From: Sphingomonas bisphenolicum
GTDB lineage: Bacteria; Pseudomonadota; Alphaproteobacteria; Sphingomonadales; Sphingomonadaceae
Assembly (NCBI RefSeq): GCF_024349785.1
Contig: NZ_AP018817.1
Span: 527,501-591,500, forward strand
Length of the DNA stretch: 64,000 nucleotides
Direction of reading: 5' to 3'
Positions 5,370-24,464 of the stretch are shown here, in pieces. Under the pieces are notes generated by a model. That model did no database searches. It worked only from the letters and a program-made list of their open reading frames with translations, and was not told where the DNA came from. Every line of letters begins with the position of its first letter. The stretch's first letter is position 1. The translations under genes and the position numbers were made by a program.

Positions 5370-6350
5370 TTATTCGGCGGCTTCGGTCGCCGGGCGGGCG
5401 CGACGGGTGCGCTTCTTGGGCGCTTCCTCGGCCACTTCGGCGTCATTGTCGGCGCGGGCGATCGAGGGCGGCAGCACCGCCAGGTCCAGCCCTTCGCTCG
5501 CTTCCGCTTCAGCCACGACCTTGCGCGGGCGACCGCGACGGGGGCGCGGGGCCTCGGCTTCGGGCGCGGCCGCTTCGGGTGCGGTCTGGACGACCGGCTG
5601 CTGGCGCGGGGCTTCCGTAGCGGGATTGCCCGCCGGGCCTTCTACGCCCATTTCCTGCTGCACCGGGGCATCGCCGTCGGCATTGAAGCGATCGCGGCGG
5701 GGACGGTCGCGACGGACATTGCCGGCGCGCGCCTCGCGGGGTTCGCGCGGCTCGCGATTGTCGCGGGGTTCCCGATAGTCGCGACTGTCGCGCGGCTCGC
5801 GGGCTTCGCGATCGTCCTGACGCTCAGACCGGCGATCCTGCTGGTCACGCGGGGCCTGCTGGTCGCGCTGACCCTGTTCACGCTGGCCCTGTTCACGCTG
5901 GCCCTGTTCACGCTGGCCCTGGTCCCGCCCATTTTGTTCACGGGGGGCCTGCTCCCGCGGGGTACGATCATAGGCGTGCTGCTGGTCGCTGCGGAAATCG
6001 TCGACGCCATCGTAGCCGCCGTCGAAATCGTCGCCATCCTGGTCGAAATTCTCGTCGCGGGTGCGCTGCCGGGGGTTCTGCTCCTCCTGGCGGGCGCGGT
6101 TGTCGGCGAGCACGCGGAAATAATGATCGGCGAACTGGAGATAATATTCGGCATTCACCCGGTCGCCCGCCATCTGGGCGTCGCGGGCAATATTCTTGTA
6201 TTTCTCAAGAAGCTGGGTCGCATTGCCGCGGGCGCGGTTGTCGATGCGATTACCGTTGTCGCCACCGCCCCGATTATTGCCGTTGGGACGTCCGTTGTTA
6301 TTATTGTTCCGGCCGCGATTGCGGCGGCCGGCCTGCCGGTTGTTGATCAA
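5370..6350 (-). CDS. DUF4167 protein, basic and low-complexity
   Basis: A 326-residue protein. The first ~25 residues are rich in Arg, Asn and Gly, then comes the conserved DUF4167 core (about residues 40-90, ATQLLEKYKNIARDAQMAGD then NAEYYLQFADHYFRVL). A long charged, disordered region with Gln/Arg/Glu repeats follows, and then a basic tail with GRPRK. The family is common in alphaproteobacteria and of unknown function; the RG-rich start and basic tail suggest nucleic-acid binding, which is inference. It is a single gene with its own terminator and a leader rich in hairpins. Confidence 0.85.
   Translation of the reverse strand: MINNRQAGRRNRGRNNNNNGRPNGNNRGGGDNGNRIDNRARGNATQLLEKYKNIARDAQMAGDRVNAEYYLQFADHYFRVLADNRARQEEQNPRQRTRDENFDQDGDDFDGGYDGVDDFRSDQQHAYDRTPREQAPREQNGRDQGQREQGQREQGQREQGQRDQQAPRDQQDRRSERQDDREAREPRDSRDYREPRDNREPREPREARAGNVRRDRPRRDRFNADGDAPVQQEMGVEGPAGNPATEAPRQQPVVQTAPEAAAPEAEAPRPRRGRPRKVVAEAEASEGLDLAVLPPSIARADNDAEVAEEAPKKRTRRARPATEAAE
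5866..5923 (-). repeat. 15-nt tandem repeats inside the DUF4167 gene
   Basis: A 15-nt unit is repeated about three and a half times with few changes (units at 5879-5893, 5894-5908 and 5909-5923, with a diverged copy before them). In frame it encodes repeats of QREQG in the disordered region. Copy number could vary between strains without a frameshift. Confidence 0.8.
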
Positions 6351-19172: not shown

Positions 19173-19714
19173 AGGCGGCGCGCCTGCTGCTGCCCGTCGC
19201 CCTGCTCGGCGGGTGCGGGGACGGGGAACCGGTCGCGAATCAGACGCAGCCGGTGCCGGCCAAGGCGATCGCCGTGCCGATCGACAAAGGCGGCGTCGTG
19301 CATGAGGCGATGACGGCGGCCCCGCCTCCGCCGACCGCCGTACTGCCCAAGCCTTTGGTTTCACGTGGAACATCATCGCCACGCCCCGCCGCACCCGCTT
19401 ATCGCGCGATCGGCACCGAGCCTTTCTGGGCGGTCACTGTCCGCGGGTCGACCGCTACGCTGGAACGGCCGGACCATGCGCCGCAGCGCTTTTCCGTGCG
19501 GACGGAGGCGGACGACAAGGCTATCCGCTATCAGGGCGACGGCTTTGCCATGACGCTGACGCAAGGACCGTGCAGCGACGGCATGAGCGATGCGATCTGG
19601 TCCGACCGGGTGCAGGTGGCGTTCGGCGAGGGGACGCTGAAAGGCTGCGGCGGCGAACGGGATGGGGGTGAACGGGACGGGGGCGAACGGGACGGGGGCG
19701 ACGACGCGCCTTAA
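19169..19714 (+). CDS. Lipoprotein with COG3650-like domain, uncharacterised
   Basis: A 181-residue protein with a short lipoprotein signal (LLGGC, Cys near residue 16), a Pro/Ala-rich linker, and a domain starting YRAIGTEPFWAVTV and ending VQVAFGEGTLKGCGG. That domain resembles small META/COG3650-type envelope domains. The tail is a run of GGERD repeats. The ATG overlaps the tag stop (ATGA). The stop codon shares TTAA with the convergent helicase gene. The function is unknown. Confidence 0.75.
   Translation: MKAARLLLPVALLGGCGDGEPVANQTQPVPAKAIAVPIDKGGVVHEAMTAAPPPPTAVLPKPLVSRGTSSPRPAAPAYRAIGTEPFWAVTVRGSTATLERPDHAPQRFSVRTEADDKAIRYQGDGFAMTLTQGPCSDGMSDAIWSDRVQVAFGEGTLKGCGGERDGGERDGGERDGGDDAP
19357..19372. 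promoter_or_regulatory. parS-like site (two mismatches)
   Basis: The 16-mer around a CACGTG centre differs from the consensus TGTTTCACGTGAAACA at positions 1 and 12. It lies in the coding region of the lipoprotein gene, about 24 kb from parAB. Binding by ParB is plausible but weaker than for the sites next to parA. Confidence 0.45.
19655..19699 (+). repeat. Three 15-nt tandem repeats at a gene end
   Basis: Units at 19655-19669, 19670-19684 and 19685-19699 are identical except for two changes in the first. In frame they encode GERDG-type repeats at the C-terminus of the lipoprotein. Loss or gain of units would keep the frame. Confidence 0.85.
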
Positions 19715-22200
19715 TCCGCGCGCATCGCTTCGGCCACCAGCGCTTCGGCCTCTATCAGCAGCGCATCCTCGGCCGCTGATTGCGCCACATGTTCGCGGCC
19801 GATCAGGATCAGCACCGGCACGGCGAGCGGACTGACCCGTTCCAGCGTGACATGGAGCATCGTCGTCGCCGCCCGGTCGATCAGGTCGCCCAGCCGCCCG
19901 ACATCGGTCATGCGCGCGCGCGCATCGGCCCAGGCGGCCTTCAGGAGCAGATGGTCGGGCTGATATTTGCGCAGCACGTCATAGATGAGGTCGGTCGAGA
20001 AGGTCACCTGCCGCCCGGTCTTGCGCTTGCCCGGATGCTGACGCTCGATCAGGCCCGAAATCACCGCCACATCGCGAAAGGCGCGCTTCAGGAGGCTCGA
20101 TTGCTCGACCCAGTCGACAAATTCATGGTCGAGGATATCGGCGGAAAACAGGCTTTGCGGATCGGTCACGGGCTTCAGTCCATAGACCGCCAGCGCATAG
20201 TCGTTGGAGACGAAACCCAAGGGCATCAGCCCCTGGCTCTCCATCCGCCGGGTCAGCAACATGCCGAGCGACTGATGCGCGTTCCAGCCTTCGAAACTGT
20301 AACAGACGAGATAATGGCGCCCTTCATGCGGGAAGGTTTCGATCAAAAGCTGGCCGGGCTGGGGCAGGGCGGAGCGTAATTTCTGCATCTCCAGCCATTC
20401 GCGCACATCGGGCGGGAAGCGATGCCATTCCTGCGGCGCCGCCAGGAAATGCCGCACCCGGTCGGCGAGGCGGGTGGACATCGCCATGCGGGTGCCGCCC
20501 CAACTGGGAATGCGCGCCTGTTTCGATGTCGCCCGGACCGTGAGGTCGGACGTGTCCATCCGCACCACCTCCAGCGCCATGCCGGAGAAGAAGAAACTGT
20601 CGCCGGGGCGTAGCTGCGCCGCGAAGCCTTCCTCGACCGTGCCCAGCTTGCGCCCGTTGGCGAAGCGAACAGCGAGCGCCGGCTGGTCGACGATGATGCC
20701 GGCATTGAGCCGATGCTGCTGGATGAAGCGCGGGTGGGACACGCGCCAAAGCACATTGCCCTGGCCATCATCGTCCTGCGTCAGCCGCTTGAACCGGTCA
20801 TAGGCGCGCAGCGCATAGCCGCCACCCTCGATGAAATGCAGGACATGGTCGAAGGCTTCGGCGGTCAGCCCGCTATAGGGCGTGGCGGATCGCAGCTCGT
20901 CCAGCAGATCCTCCGCCCGGAACGGCCCGGCGCAGGCCAGGCCCATCACATGCTGGACCAGCACATCCAGGCTGCCGGCGCGGAAATCGTCGGCGTCGCG
21001 CTCGCCCGCCTCGACGGCATCGAGGGCGGCGCGCGCCTCCAGATATTCGAAGCGGTTCCCCGGAATCAGGATCGCCTCGCTCGCCTGATCCAGCCGGTGA
21101 TTGGCGCGACCGATCCGCTGGAGCAGGCGTGACGATCCCTTGGGCGCGCCCATCTGGATCACGCAATCGACATTGCCCCAGTCGACGCCAAGATCGAGCG
21201 AGGCCGTCGCCACCAAGGCGCGCAGCTTGCCTGCCGCCATCGCGGATTCGACCTTGCGCCGCGCCTCGATCGACAGGCTGCCATGGTGGATGGCGATCGG
21301 CAGGTTGGCGTCATTGACGGACCAGAGTTCCTGGAAGATGAGTTCGGCGAGGCCGCGCGTATTGCAGAAGACCAGCGTCGTCTGCCGCGCCTCTATCTCC
21401 GCCATCACCTGTTTCGCGGCATATTTGCCCGAATGGCCCGACCAGGGGACGCGGCCTTCGGGGATCAGGATGGCGACGTTCGGCTCCGCGCCCGCTTCGC
21501 CCATCACCGGCGTCACCCTGTCGATATCGCCATCGGGTGCGAGCCAGGCGCGATAGGCGTCGACATCGGCGACCGTGGCGGACAGGGCGACGCGGCGCAG
21601 CGCCGGGTTGATCGCCTGCAACCGCGCCATCGACAGGCTGAGCAGGTCGCCTCGCTTCTGCGTGGCGAAGGCATGGACTTCATCGACGATCACGGTCCGC
21701 AGGTCGGAAAAGAGCAAGGCCGCGTCGGGATAGCTGAGCAGCAGCGACAGCGATTCGGGCGTGGTCAGCAATATCTGCGGCGGACGGACGCGCTGCCGCG
21801 CCTTGCGATCGGACGGCGTGTCGCCGGTGCGCGTCTCCACGCTGATGGGAAGCCCCATCTCCTCGATCGGGGTCAGGAGGTTGCGCCGCACATCGACCGC
21901 GAGCGCCTTCAGGGGCGAGACATAAAGGGTATGCAACCGGTCGGTCGGATGGGCGATCAGATCGGCGAGGCTGGGCAGGAATCCGGCCAGCGTCTTGCCC
22001 GCGCCGGTCGGCGCGACCAGCAAAGCATGATCGCCCCGCTGCGCCGCCCCCAGCATGTCCATCTGGTGCCGCCGGGGTCGCCAGCCGCGCGACGCGAGCC
22101 AGCGTCCAATGATGGCGGGGAGGGCGAGCGGCATCAGGGGGATGTAGGGAGCCATGGCCCCGCTGTCACGCTCTGCGCTTTGCCACGAGGTTTCGGCCAT
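19711..22200 (-). CDS. Ligase-associated DEXH-box DNA helicase (Lhr-like)
   Basis: An 829-residue superfamily 2 helicase of the Lhr type that usually occurs with an ATP-dependent DNA ligase, an MBL-fold exonuclease and the PdeM phosphoesterase. Walker A APTGAGKT ends at residue 70, DEVH is at 173-176, and motif VI appears as QRIGRANHRLD. The start at 22200 has a GGAAGAG site about 10 nt upstream; a shorter start at 22155 is possible. The frame is open to 22350, but this is chance coding across the neighbour. No ligase or exonuclease lies beside it, while pdeM is 34 kb away. Confidence 0.92.
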   Translation of the reverse strand: MAETSWQSAERDSGAMAPYIPLMPLALPAIIGRWLASRGWRPRRHQMDMLGAAQRGDHALLVAPTGAGKTLAGFLPSLADLIAHPTDRLHTLYVSPLKALAVDVRRNLLTPIEEMGLPISVETRTGDTPSDRKARQRVRPPQILLTTPESLSLLLSYPDAALLFSDLRTVIVDEVHAFATQKRGDLLSLSMARLQAINPALRRVALSATVADVDAYRAWLAPDGDIDRVTPVMGEAGAEPNVAILIPEGRVPWSGHSGKYAAKQVMAEIEARQTTLVFCNTRGLAELIFQELWSVNDANLPIAIHHGSLSIEARRKVESAMAAGKLRALVATASLDLGVDWGNVDCVIQMGAPKGSSRLLQRIGRANHRLDQASEAILIPGNRFEYLEARAALDAVEAGERDADDFRAGSLDVLVQHVMGLACAGPFRAEDLLDELRSATPYSGLTAEAFDHVLHFIEGGGYALRAYDRFKRLTQDDDGQGNVLWRVSHPRFIQQHRLNAGIIVDQPALAVRFANGRKLGTVEEGFAAQLRPGDSFFFSGMALEVVRMDTSDLTVRATSKQARIPSWGGTRMAMSTRLADRVRHFLAAPQEWHRFPPDVREWLEMQKLRSALPQPGQLLIETFPHEGRHYLVCYSFEGWNAHQSLGMLLTRRMESQGLMPLGFVSNDYALAVYGLKPVTDPQSLFSADILDHEFVDWVEQSSLLKRAFRDVAVISGLIERQHPGKRKTGRQVTFSTDLIYDVLRKYQPDHLLLKAAWADARARMTDVGRLGDLIDRAATTMLHVTLERVSPLAVPVLILIGREHVAQSAAEDALLIEAEALVAEAMRAD

Positions 22201-22291
22201 GGTAGATTGCGCCTCTTCCTTCAGGACCGCGCAACGCCCTACAGGATCAAGCGTATAGGCTGTTGCGCAGCATAGCGCATGGAGAGTGGCC

Positions 22292-22489
22292 ATGACCAAG
22301 ACCATCCACACAGAGCCGATGCCGGACGTCTTTTTCGACATCTGGTTCATGCCTGCCGCCTTCTGGACCCAATGGTGGGGCTTTTATGCCGAGACGTTGA
22401 ATGTCGGTCGTCTCTGCACGCCGCATCATCCGGTCGTACAGGATGAGTCGCCGGTCGATATCGAGGTCGAAGAGGGGCTGGTCGCCTGA
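22292..22489 (+). CDS. 65-aa aromatic-rich protein, uncharacterised (copy 1)
   Basis: I do not recognise this protein. It starts at an ATG 5 nt after GGAGAG, a strong ribosome site, so it is very likely translated. Its middle section is unusually rich in Trp, Phe and Tyr (FFDIWFMPAAFWTQWWGF) and could form an amphipathic, membrane-touching helix; the C-terminus is acidic. It lies upstream of a sulfur amino-acid enzyme gene. An apparently identical second copy follows 512 nt downstream. No signal peptide or Cys-pair motif is seen. Confidence 0.7.
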   Translation: MTKTIHTEPMPDVFFDIWFMPAAFWTQWWGFYAETLNVGRLCTPHHPVVQDESPVDIEVEEGLVA

Positions 22490-22591
22490 ATCGCCGCGGG
22501 GTACGCGGAATAATCATATAACGGCAAGAAATAATCTTACGCGCCCCTCTGGCCCTCCGCCGCCGCCCTGCGTTACACTCCCGCCACGACA

Positions 22592-22610
22592 GCGGCGCAT
22601 CAGACGCCGC
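22592..22610 (+). promoter_or_regulatory. Hairpin beside a ribosome binding site
   Basis: GCGGCG (22592-22597) can pair with CGCCGC (22605-22610); the AGGAG ribosome site begins about 5 nt further on. The same arrangement recurs at 23104-23122 before the intact gene. It might influence translation of the PLP enzyme gene, but it is a small hairpin in GC-rich DNA. Confidence 0.35.
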
Positions 22611-22626
22611 CAGCAGGAGATATGAT

Positions 22627-22770
22627 ATGACCGGCGAAACCGAAGCCGACCTGACCGGCGTGGAAGCCCCGCGCAACCGCCGCCGCCCCAAGGCCCCGAT
22701 CATGGAGATCGACGGCCGTAAGCTGAAGCCTGCCACGCTCGCGCAACGCCCTACAGGATCAAGCGTATAG
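22627..22770 (+). pseudogene. Truncated 5' copy of the cystathionine gamma-synthase-family gene
   Basis: The first 38 codons match the start of the intact gene at 23139. The frame then crosses the duplication junction and runs 9 more codons to a TAG at 22768-22770. It keeps the ribosome site, so a 47-residue fragment may be made. It is a by-product of the tandem duplication, not an independent gene. Confidence 0.85.
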
Positions 22771-23251
22771 GCTGTTGCGCAGCATAGCGCATGGAGAGTG
22801 GCCATGACCAAGACCATCCACACAGAGCCGATGCCGGACGTCTTTTTCGACATCTGGTTCATGCCTGCCGCCTTCTGGACCCAATGGTGGGGCTTTTATG
22901 CCGAGACGTTGAATGTCGGTCGTCTCTGCACGCCGCATCATCCGGTCGTACAGGATGAGTCGCCGGTCGATATCGAGGTCGAAGAGGGGCTGGTCGCCTG
23001 AATCGCCGCGGGGTACGCGGAATAATCATATAACGGCAAGAAATAATCTTACGCGCCCCTCTGGCCCTCCGCCGCCGCCCTGCGTTACACTCCCGCCACG
23101 ACAGCGGCGCATCAGACGCCGCCAGCAGGAGATATGATATGACCGGCGAAACCGAAGCCGACCTGACCGGCGTGGAAGCCCCGCGCAACCGCCGCCGCCC
23201 CAAGGCCCCGATCATGGAGATCGACGGCCGTAAGCTGAAGCCTGCCACGCT
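22740..23251. repeat. 512-bp direct tandem duplication, copy 2
   Basis: This copy reads the same base for base as 22228-22739 in my comparison and leads without break into the rest of the intact gene, so copy 2 is continuous with the original downstream sequence. The lack of differences means a very recent event or an assembly error. Confidence 0.92.
22804..23001 (+). CDS. 65-aa aromatic-rich protein, uncharacterised (copy 2)
   Basis: This is an apparently identical second copy of the gene at 22292-22489, with the same GGAGAG ribosome site and upstream sequence, so its expression signals are probably duplicated as well, unless the promoter lies further upstream. It ends 137 nt before the intact PLP-enzyme gene. 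The product is unknown. Confidence 0.7.
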   Translation: MTKTIHTEPMPDVFFDIWFMPAAFWTQWWGFYAETLNVGRLCTPHHPVVQDESPVDIEVEEGLVA

Positions 23252-24464
23252 GATGATGGGCCATGGCTATGATCCGACCCTGTCGGAGGGGTCGCTCAAG
23301 CCGCCCATCTTCCTGACCTCCACCTTCGCCTTCGAAAGCGCCGCGGCCGGCAAGCGCCATTTCGAGGGCGTGACCGGCATTCGTCCCGGCGGATCGGAAG
23401 GGCTGGTCTATTCCCGCTTCAACGGCCCCAATCAGGAGATTTGCGAGGATCGCCTGTCGGTGTGGGAAGAGGCGGAAGATGCGCTGCTCTTTTCCAGCGG
23501 CATGTCGGCCATCGCCACCACATTGCTGGCGCTGGTGCAGCCCGGCGACGTGATCGTCCATTCGGCGCCGCTCTATGCCGCGACCGAATCGCTGATCGGC
23601 CGCATATTGGGCAAATTCGGGGTGCAATGGCTCGATTTTCCGGCCGGCGCGACCGAAGAAGAAATCGGCGCGGTGATCGAGAAGGCCAGGGGTCTGGGCC
23701 GCGTCGCCCTGCTCTATCTGGAAAGCCCGGCCAACCCGACCAATGTGCTTGTCGACGTGGAAGCGGTGGTCGCGCGGCGCGACTCGCTGTTCGCCGGGGA
23801 AGCGCATGTCCCGCCGATCGCGATCGACAATACGTTCCTGGGGCCGCTGTGGCACAAGCCGCTCGCCCATGGCGCTGACCTCGTCATCTACAGCCTGACC
23901 AAATATGCCGGCGGGCATAGCGACCTCGTCGCGGGCGGGGTGCTGGGCTCCAACGCGCTGATCACCACCATCCGGTTGATGCGCAACACGATCGGCACGA
24001 TCCTCGATCCCCATAGCGCCTGGATGCTGCTGCGATCGCTGGAGACGCTGGAATTGCGCATGAGCCGGGCGGGCGAGAATGCGGAGAAAGTCTGCGCCTG
24101 GCTCAAGGACCAGCCGCAGGTGGAGAAGGTGGTCTATCTGGGCTTTCCCGAAACCGAGCGGCAGGCGGACATCTATCGCCGCCATTGCACCGGCGCGGGA
24201 TCGACCTTCTCGCTCTACCTCAAGGGTGGCGAGGCGGAGGCCTTCGCCTTTCTCGACGCGCTCAAGATCGCCAAGCTGGCGGTCAGCCTGGGCGGGACCG
24301 AGACGCTCGCCAGTCATCCCGCCGCCATGACCCATCTGTCCGTGCCGGCCGAGCGCAAGAAGGCGCTGGCGATCGGCGACAATATGGTCCGCATCTCGAT
24401 CGGCTGCGAGGATGCCGACGACCTGATCGCCGATTTCGCCCAGGCGTTGCGGCAGGTCGGCTGA
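23139..24464 (+). CDS. Cystathionine gamma-synthase-family PLP enzyme
   Basis: A 441-residue member of the Cys/Met-metabolism PLP family (cystathionine synthase/lyase, methionine gamma-lyase). The PLP lysine is Lys255 in YSLTKYAGGHSD, with SSGMSAIATTLLAL for phosphate binding and the family C-terminus ending in SIGCEDADDLIADF. The family covers gamma-synthase and lyase reactions on homoserine esters, cystathionine or methionine; the exact substrate is not clear. AGGAG precedes the start. The first 38 codons are duplicated upstream. A dehydrogenase gene follows after 3 nt, suggesting co-expression. Confidence 0.9.
   Translation: MTGETEADLTGVEAPRNRRRPKAPIMEIDGRKLKPATLMMGHGYDPTLSEGSLKPPIFLTSTFAFESAAAGKRHFEGVTGIRPGGSEGLVYSRFNGPNQEICEDRLSVWEEAEDALLFSSGMSAIATTLLALVQPGDVIVHSAPLYAATESLIGRILGKFGVQWLDFPAGATEEEIGAVIEKARGLGRVALLYLESPANPTNVLVDVEAVVARRDSLFAGEAHVPPIAIDNTFLGPLWHKPLAHGADLVIYSLTKYAGGHSDLVAGGVLGSNALITTIRLMRNTIGTILDPHSAWMLLRSLETLELRMSRAGENAEKVCAWLKDQPQVEKVVYLGFPETERQADIYRRHCTGAGSTFSLYLKGGEAEAFAFLDALKIAKLAVSLGGTETLASHPAAMTHLSVPAERKKALAIGDNMVRISIGCEDADDLIADFAQALRQVG

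What the first reader, a model, noticed from the sequence alone, without database searches (positions are those of the whole stretch)
22228..23251. Perfect 512-bp tandem duplication that copies a microprotein gene and the start of a PLP-enzyme gene
Two head-to-tail copies, 22228-22739 and 22740-23251, read as identical, with bounded edges and no obvious microhomology at the join. The result is two full copies of a 65-aa protein gene with their upstream regions, plus a truncated 47-aa leader of the cystathionine gamma-synthase-family gene. Such duplications raise gene dosage and collapse easily by recombination, so it may be a recent adaptive or unstable state. An assembly error is equally possible.
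Basis: seen in the sequence. Interest (0 to 1): 0.7.

Follow-up and report, generated by a model that had tools for sequence, protein, structure and literature searches.

The report
Recent perfect 512-bp tandem duplication
A Sphingobium-type bacterium's assembled chromosome carries one short stretch twice in a row, copying a tiny gene of unknown function and the start of an enzyme gene; it looks like an ordinary, very recent copying accident (or an assembly slip) rather than a new biological system.

Summary
The genome holds exactly these two copies. The ancestral state is one copy: the 65-aa gene lies between a divergent helicase gene and the cystathionine gamma-synthase (CGS)-family gene in 20 of 94 genus genomes, and only this genome has two. 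The 47-aa ORF made by the junction is recorded on one database contig, as long as this chromosome; the microprotein is on six, the longest 3,731,630 bp against 3,731,049 here. So the event appears private to this assembly. Ku (3 loci) and LigD_N (4 loci) are encoded, so blunt end-joining is available. The chromosome closes exactly without end overlap, and 960,141 sampled bases show no other exact tandem repeat of 40 bp or more; both weaken the artefact reading without excluding it. Best reading: a very recent, probably neutral, illegitimate tandem duplication (0.6); main rival, an assembly error (0.32). No sign of selection was found.

The parts
22228..22739 (+). Copy 1 of the 512-bp unit
   Evidence: 512/512 identical to copy 2, maximal extent
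22740..23251 (+). Copy 2 of the 512-bp unit, contiguous with the intact CGS-family gene
22739..22740 (.). Novel junction: the start of the CGS-family gene (38 codons) joined to the point that in copy 1 lies 24 bp before the helicase start; 0 bp microhomology, no inserted bases
   Evidence: five relatives run straight through at both edges
22292..22489 (+). 65-aa microprotein gene, copy 1
   Evidence: ORF with GGAGAG upstream; orthologues in relatives; dN/dS 0.16-0.47 in 11 comparisons
22804..23001 (+). 65-aa microprotein gene, copy 2
   Evidence: as copy 1
22627..22770 (+). 47-aa chimeric ORF: first 38 codons of the CGS-family gene plus 9 foreign residues; by-product of the junction
   Evidence: in the protein database on one contig, of 3,731,049 bp
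23139..24464 (+). Intact PLP-enzyme gene, NCBIfam NF005455 cystathionine gamma-synthase family protein (692.8 bits, cut-off 504)
19711..22203 (-). Divergent neighbour: ligase-associated DEXH box helicase (TIGR04121, 1064 bits, cut-off 850); its likely start lies 24 bp left of the unit
22507..22539 (+). Conserved 33-bp element GGAATAATCATATA-N7-GAAATAATCTTA, copy 1 (putative operator or promoter part of the CGS-family gene; two AATAATC repeats 21 bp apart)
   Evidence: pattern drawn from relatives; exact match in 16 of 94 genus genomes, once each except twice in this one
23019..23051 (+). The same 33-bp element, copy 2

Best explanation
A single, very recent illegitimate (homology-independent) tandem duplication in one strain of a Sphingobium-type bacterium. 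Likely mechanism: a break or stalled fork between the helicase and CGS-family genes, followed by joining of one sister chromatid's end to the other at a non-homologous point, leaving 512 bp head to tail. The blunt join with no shared bases fits Ku/LigD end-joining or microhomology-free template switching. Effects: a second intact microprotein gene, a dead 47-aa leader, and the CGS-family gene left intact with its own upstream region; microprotein copy 2 now also lies downstream of a copied CGS upstream region. Shown: anatomy, junction, single-copy ancestry, Ku and LigD_N genes. Inferred: the joining mechanism, neutrality, and that the DNA molecule really exists.
For: Exact identity, sharp edges, 0 bp microhomology. 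Only this genome of 94 in the genus has two copies; the other 24 with a match have one. Relatives keep the same gene order around one copy. The junction ORF is on one database contig against six for the microprotein. The best-matching relative (G013) differs over the unit at 82.7% identity (67 mismatches and 25 gap positions over 532 aligned), the two copies at 0, so the event postdates that split unless the copies were homogenised. Three Ku and four LigD_N loci. C1 is closed: the nadA-DUF4230 gap across the contig ends is 53 bp, against 53-54 bp in four relatives (by hand). No other exact tandem repeat of 40 bp or more in 960,141 bp. Homology-free tandem duplications are described in bacteria (PMC11111574, passages).
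Against: No reads, read depth or sequencing method could be seen. A contig of nearly equal length (3,731,630 bp) carries the same microprotein, but the junction ORF is not recorded on it; if it is the same strain, the duplication is an assembly slip or a culture variant. That absence rests on gene calling by each source. Many of the relatives are drafts of tens to hundreds of contigs, in which short reads could have collapsed such a repeat. In Salmonella, duplications were confirmed only at junction microhomology of 11 bp or more (5 of 8 tested; those with 7 and 9 bp failed, and candidates had been picked for longer microhomology; PMC3411829, passages).
Confidence: 0.6

Rival explanations
1. 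Assembly artefact: two overlapping contig or unitig ends (or an untrimmed circularisation overlap later moved inside) were joined without merging, leaving a perfect 512-bp repeat.
For: Perfect identity, random-looking edges and 0 bp microhomology are what such a join gives. Start/end duplication is a known fault of long-read assemblers; Redbean and Shasta are said to produce some duplication often, of unstated size (PMC6966772, passages). The junction ORF is known from this assembly alone.
Against: The chromosome contig is opened 42 bp upstream of nadA, not at dnaA (C1:1293913), and closes to the base, so it gives no sign of having been rotated. No shared 25-mers between the first 10 kb and the last 4-10 kb of the five replicons tested (C1, C3-C6). 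C3-C6, scanned whole, have no such repeat. For Canu and NextDenovo PMC6966772 reports overlaps of thousands of bases, larger than 512.
Confidence: 0.32
2. Adaptive amplification: the duplication was kept because more of the microprotein, or its capture by the copied CGS upstream region, helps the strain.
For: The unit contains one whole gene with its upstream region and a conserved 33-bp element. The microprotein is under purifying selection (dN/dS 0.16-0.47 in 11 comparisons). Promoter capture by tandem duplication is described in E. coli (PMC11111574, passages).
Against: None of the other 24 genus genomes with a match has two copies. The right edge cuts the copied enzyme gene after 38 codons, as an unselected event would. 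Only two copies; no array.
Confidence: 0.07
3. Mobile-element footprint (insertion, imprecise excision or integration duplication).
For: The genome holds repeated ATPase-domain genes: ten equal-scoring hits among the 15 DnaA-family matches (that they are IstB-like transposition genes is my inference).
Against: No exact inverted repeat of 20 bp or more in the window; the genes at the edges are a helicase, the microprotein and a PLP enzyme, not transposases; 512 bp is far longer than target-site duplications (general knowledge); relatives with one copy show continuous sequence on both sides.
Confidence: 0.01

Closest known systems
Short-homology-independent spontaneous tandem duplications in bacteria (PMC11111574, passages; it cites Li and Bock 2019, Shimizu et al. 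1997, Reams and Neidle 2004, which I saw only as citations)
   Same: Head-to-tail, junction without homology, places a gene next to a new upstream region
   Different: The duplications of PMC11111574 were selected in the laboratory; here no selection is known and the copied gene has no known function
Start/end overlap duplication in long-read assemblies (PMC6966772, passages)
   Same: Perfect repeat with arbitrary edges
   Different: Here the repeat is internal, the contig ends are clean, and 512 bp is smaller than the thousands of bases reported there for Canu and NextDenovo

Membership tests
Homology-independent tandem duplication | Two adjacent direct copies | tested here: met
Homology-independent tandem duplication | No homology at the join | tested here: met
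   0 bp
Homology-independent tandem duplication | Single-copy ancestral state | tested here: met
   many relatives are drafts
Homology-independent tandem duplication | Present in the DNA of the cell, not only in the assembly | not testable with these tools
   no reads available
Ku/LigD end-joining product | Host encodes Ku and LigD | tested here: met
   3 Ku and 4 LigD_N loci, above cut-off
Ku/LigD end-joining product | Join depends on Ku/LigD | not testable with these tools
   needs mutants
Circularisation-overlap artefact | Repeat at the contig ends, or a contig rotated away from its original ends | tested here: inconclusive
   no end overlap and no start at dnaA, but rotation to an arbitrary point is not excluded
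NF005455 cystathionine gamma-synthase family protein | Score above the curated cut-off | tested here: met
   692.8 bits, cut-off 504
Known small-protein family (for the 65-aa protein) | Pfam or NCBIfam match | tested here: not met
   no Pfam family at E 0.1; 27 members scanned at E 1, best E 0.2; NCBIfam only a weak AraC match, 14.4 bits against cut-off 208

The most novel reading that the evidence does not exclude
The duplication is real and functional: it rewires an uncharacterised Sphingobium microprotein (one predicted helix, conserved C-terminus EVEEGLVA, possibly a degradation tag) so that its second copy is read from the copied CGS upstream region with the 33-bp element, coupling microprotein output to the enzyme gene.
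Probability: 0.06. Interest if true: 0.4.

Novelty: new member of a known kind. Interest (0 to 1): 0.2.

Why it matters
If real, it is a clean natural example of a small, blunt, very young tandem duplication in a genome with several Ku and LigD_N genes, useful for measuring how such repeats form and collapse outside model species. If not, it is a reminder that perfect small tandem repeats in finished genomes need read support. The by-catch may matter more: a conserved microprotein family whose named sources are Sphingobium or Sphingomonadaceae, and a conserved 33-bp element next to it; I matched neither to a known family.

Tried and rejected
Adaptive amplification: looked for a second genome with two copies among 94 genus genomes; none. 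Mobile-element footprint: no exact inverted repeat of 20 bp or more in the window, no transposase among the neighbours identified. Known RNA element: no Rfam match at the gathering threshold in the window; in 22980-23300 two matches, far below their gathering scores, E 1.5 and 5. Promoter/terminator scan of 22100-23300: 1 promoter-like and 2 terminator-like sites against 0.4 and 0.5 in shuffles; not used. Microprotein structure: one helix (residues 11-41), mean pLDDT 68.8, pTM 0.34; too little fold for a structure search, so none was run. Degron idea: the genome's tmRNA tag is ANDNEALAIAA and LVA endings are known ClpXP tag variants in E. coli (recalled); left as speculation. Context of two loci of distant microprotein relatives (L070, L072) was listed as ORFs only and gave no lead.

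Literature (PMC library only): Sphingobium + tandem duplication, 10 papers, 9 listed; Sphingobium/small protein/CGS, two of three terms, 23 papers, 10 listed; by title and start of abstract none is on this locus. Searches on homology-free duplication (12 of 153 listed) and on assembly overlap (10 of 486 listed) led to the three papers of which I saw passages. LigD/end-joining/duplication, 6 papers, listing only, not used.

Full report
What is there. Positions 22228-22739 and 22740-23251 are identical at all 512 bases and the match cannot be extended on either side; the base left of copy 1 (C) differs from that left of copy 2 (T), and the base right of copy 1 (C) from that right of copy 2 (G), so the join is blunt with 0 bp of shared sequence. 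The next-longest exact direct repeat in the 64-kb window is 35 bp. The whole genome (5,209,012 bp, 6 contigs) holds the unit exactly twice.

Anatomy. Left of the unit, on the minus strand, is a ligase-associated DEXH box helicase gene (TIGR04121, 1064 bits) whose likely start lies 24 bp away. Each unit holds a 65-aa ORF (22292-22489, 22804-23001), then 137 bp of non-coding DNA, then the first 38 codons of a PLP-enzyme gene. Copy 2 runs into the intact gene (23139-24464, NF005455). In copy 1 the reading frame crosses the junction and ends after 9 foreign residues (22627-22770).

Ancestral state. The 65-aa gene sits once between the helicase and CGS-family genes in five relatives aligned first. 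A search of the 94 genus genomes held gave a match in 25: one match in 24 of them, two in the window's genome. In 20 of the 25, the own included, both neighbours flank it; in 5 neither neighbour was found in the about 3.2 kb fetched. Of 18 relatives without it at this locus, 12 have helicase and CGS-family starts about 68-158 bp apart, one about 897 bp, and five have no helicase match in the locus. So the single-copy order is old and the duplication is derived. Caution: many of these genomes are drafts, in which short reads could collapse a 512-bp repeat; G001 (3 contigs), G097 (3), G069 (4), G075 (5) and G098 (7) are not, and each has one copy.

Private and young. The microprotein is recorded on six contigs, the longest 3,731,630 bp. 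The 47-aa ORF that only the junction makes is recorded on one, of 3,731,049 bp, the length of the window's contig. This depends on how each source called genes, so it is suggestive, not proof, that the other assemblies lack the junction. The copies differ at 0 of 512 positions, against 82.7% identity to the single copy of the best-matching relative.

Real or artefact. Against an artefact: the chromosome contig is opened just upstream of nadA, and the 53-bp gap between nadA and its neighbour across the contig ends compares with 53-54 bp in four relatives (worked out by hand; in L146 the last two residues were unaligned and assumed without indel), so the circle closes to the base. There is no end overlap in the five replicons tested (C2's end was not fetched), and the contig does not start at dnaA (C1:1293913). 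960,141 bp of the own genome (C3-C6 whole and 438 kb of C1 with the window) show no other exact tandem repeat of 40 bp or more; three dispersed exact repeats of 60 bp or more (239-404 bp) were seen. For an artefact: perfect identity, arbitrary edges and the privacy of the junction. Overlap duplications are a documented fault of long-read assemblers (PMC6966772, passages). I cannot see reads. I give 0.6 to a real event and 0.32 to an artefact.

Mechanism. The genome has three Ku loci and four LigD_N loci, three of which lie within 3 kb of a Ku locus, so blunt end-joining between sister chromatids is possible; microhomology-free template switching would look the same. Tandem duplications without homology are reported in E. 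coli (PMC11111574, passages). In Salmonella the confirmed duplications had at least 11 bp of microhomology, though candidates were picked for it (PMC3411829, passages). The junction alone cannot tell the pathways apart.

Consequence. The microprotein gene is doubled, the enzyme gene is not. Copy 2 of the microprotein now lies downstream of a copied CGS upstream region that holds a 33-bp element, GGAATAATCATATA-N7-GAAATAATCTTA. A pattern drawn from the alignments matches exactly in 16 of 94 genus genomes, once each but twice here, always within about 60 bp of the microprotein gene's end, and never for the reversed control. Four genomes with the microprotein at this locus (G002, G050, G086, G093) lack an exact match. 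Whether the duplication changes expression is unknown. No other genome shows extra copies, so selection is not indicated.

The microprotein. In the protein searches, hits with a given organism are Sphingobium or Sphingomonadaceae; in the genome collection 15 loci were found, 12 titled Sphingobium, one Sphingomonadaceae, two MAGs without genus (their copy number was not examined separately). No Pfam match. Alignment A1 used 17 of the 18 proteins (P0009 left out) plus 10 sequences from the loci. Invariant or nearly invariant residues include W18, P21, W28, E58, E60, E61, G62, L63, A65. dN/dS against the 11 relatives whose ORF aligns without gaps is 0.16-0.47, so it is a real gene. Model: one helix, residues 11-41, with flexible ends (mean pLDDT 68.8).

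Verdict. An ordinary kind of event, correctly spotted: a new instance of a known kind, low interest, with a real chance of being an assembly slip.

Noticed in passing
22292-22489 and relatives (alignments A1, A2): A microprotein family, mostly 61-72 aa, named sources Sphingobium or Sphingomonadaceae, no Pfam family, with a W/P/WW-rich helix and a conserved C-terminus around E-x-EEGL(V/C)A.
   Followed up: partly
22507-22539 and 23019-23051: 33-bp conserved element with two AATAATC repeats 21 bp apart upstream of the CGS-family gene; exact pattern in 16 of 94 genus genomes, once each except twice here.
   Followed up: partly
23084-23131 (copy 1 at 22572-22619): Conserved stretch before the CGS-family start in many relatives: GTTACACT, then a GC-rich inverted repeat (GCGGCG-CATCAGA-CGCCGC) just before AGCAGGAGA. 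Single-sequence folds did not agree on one structure; no credible Rfam match.
   Followed up: partly
G000 C1 and C2: Three Ku and four LigD_N loci in one genome, three of them as close neighbours.
   Followed up: partly
L053-L057: Five genomes carry a distant version of the microprotein (ending EAEGLCA or EDEEGLCA) away from the helicase-CGS locus.
   Followed up: no
window 5872-5921: Short exact tandem repeat of 15-bp units (35-bp match at offset 15).
   Followed up: no
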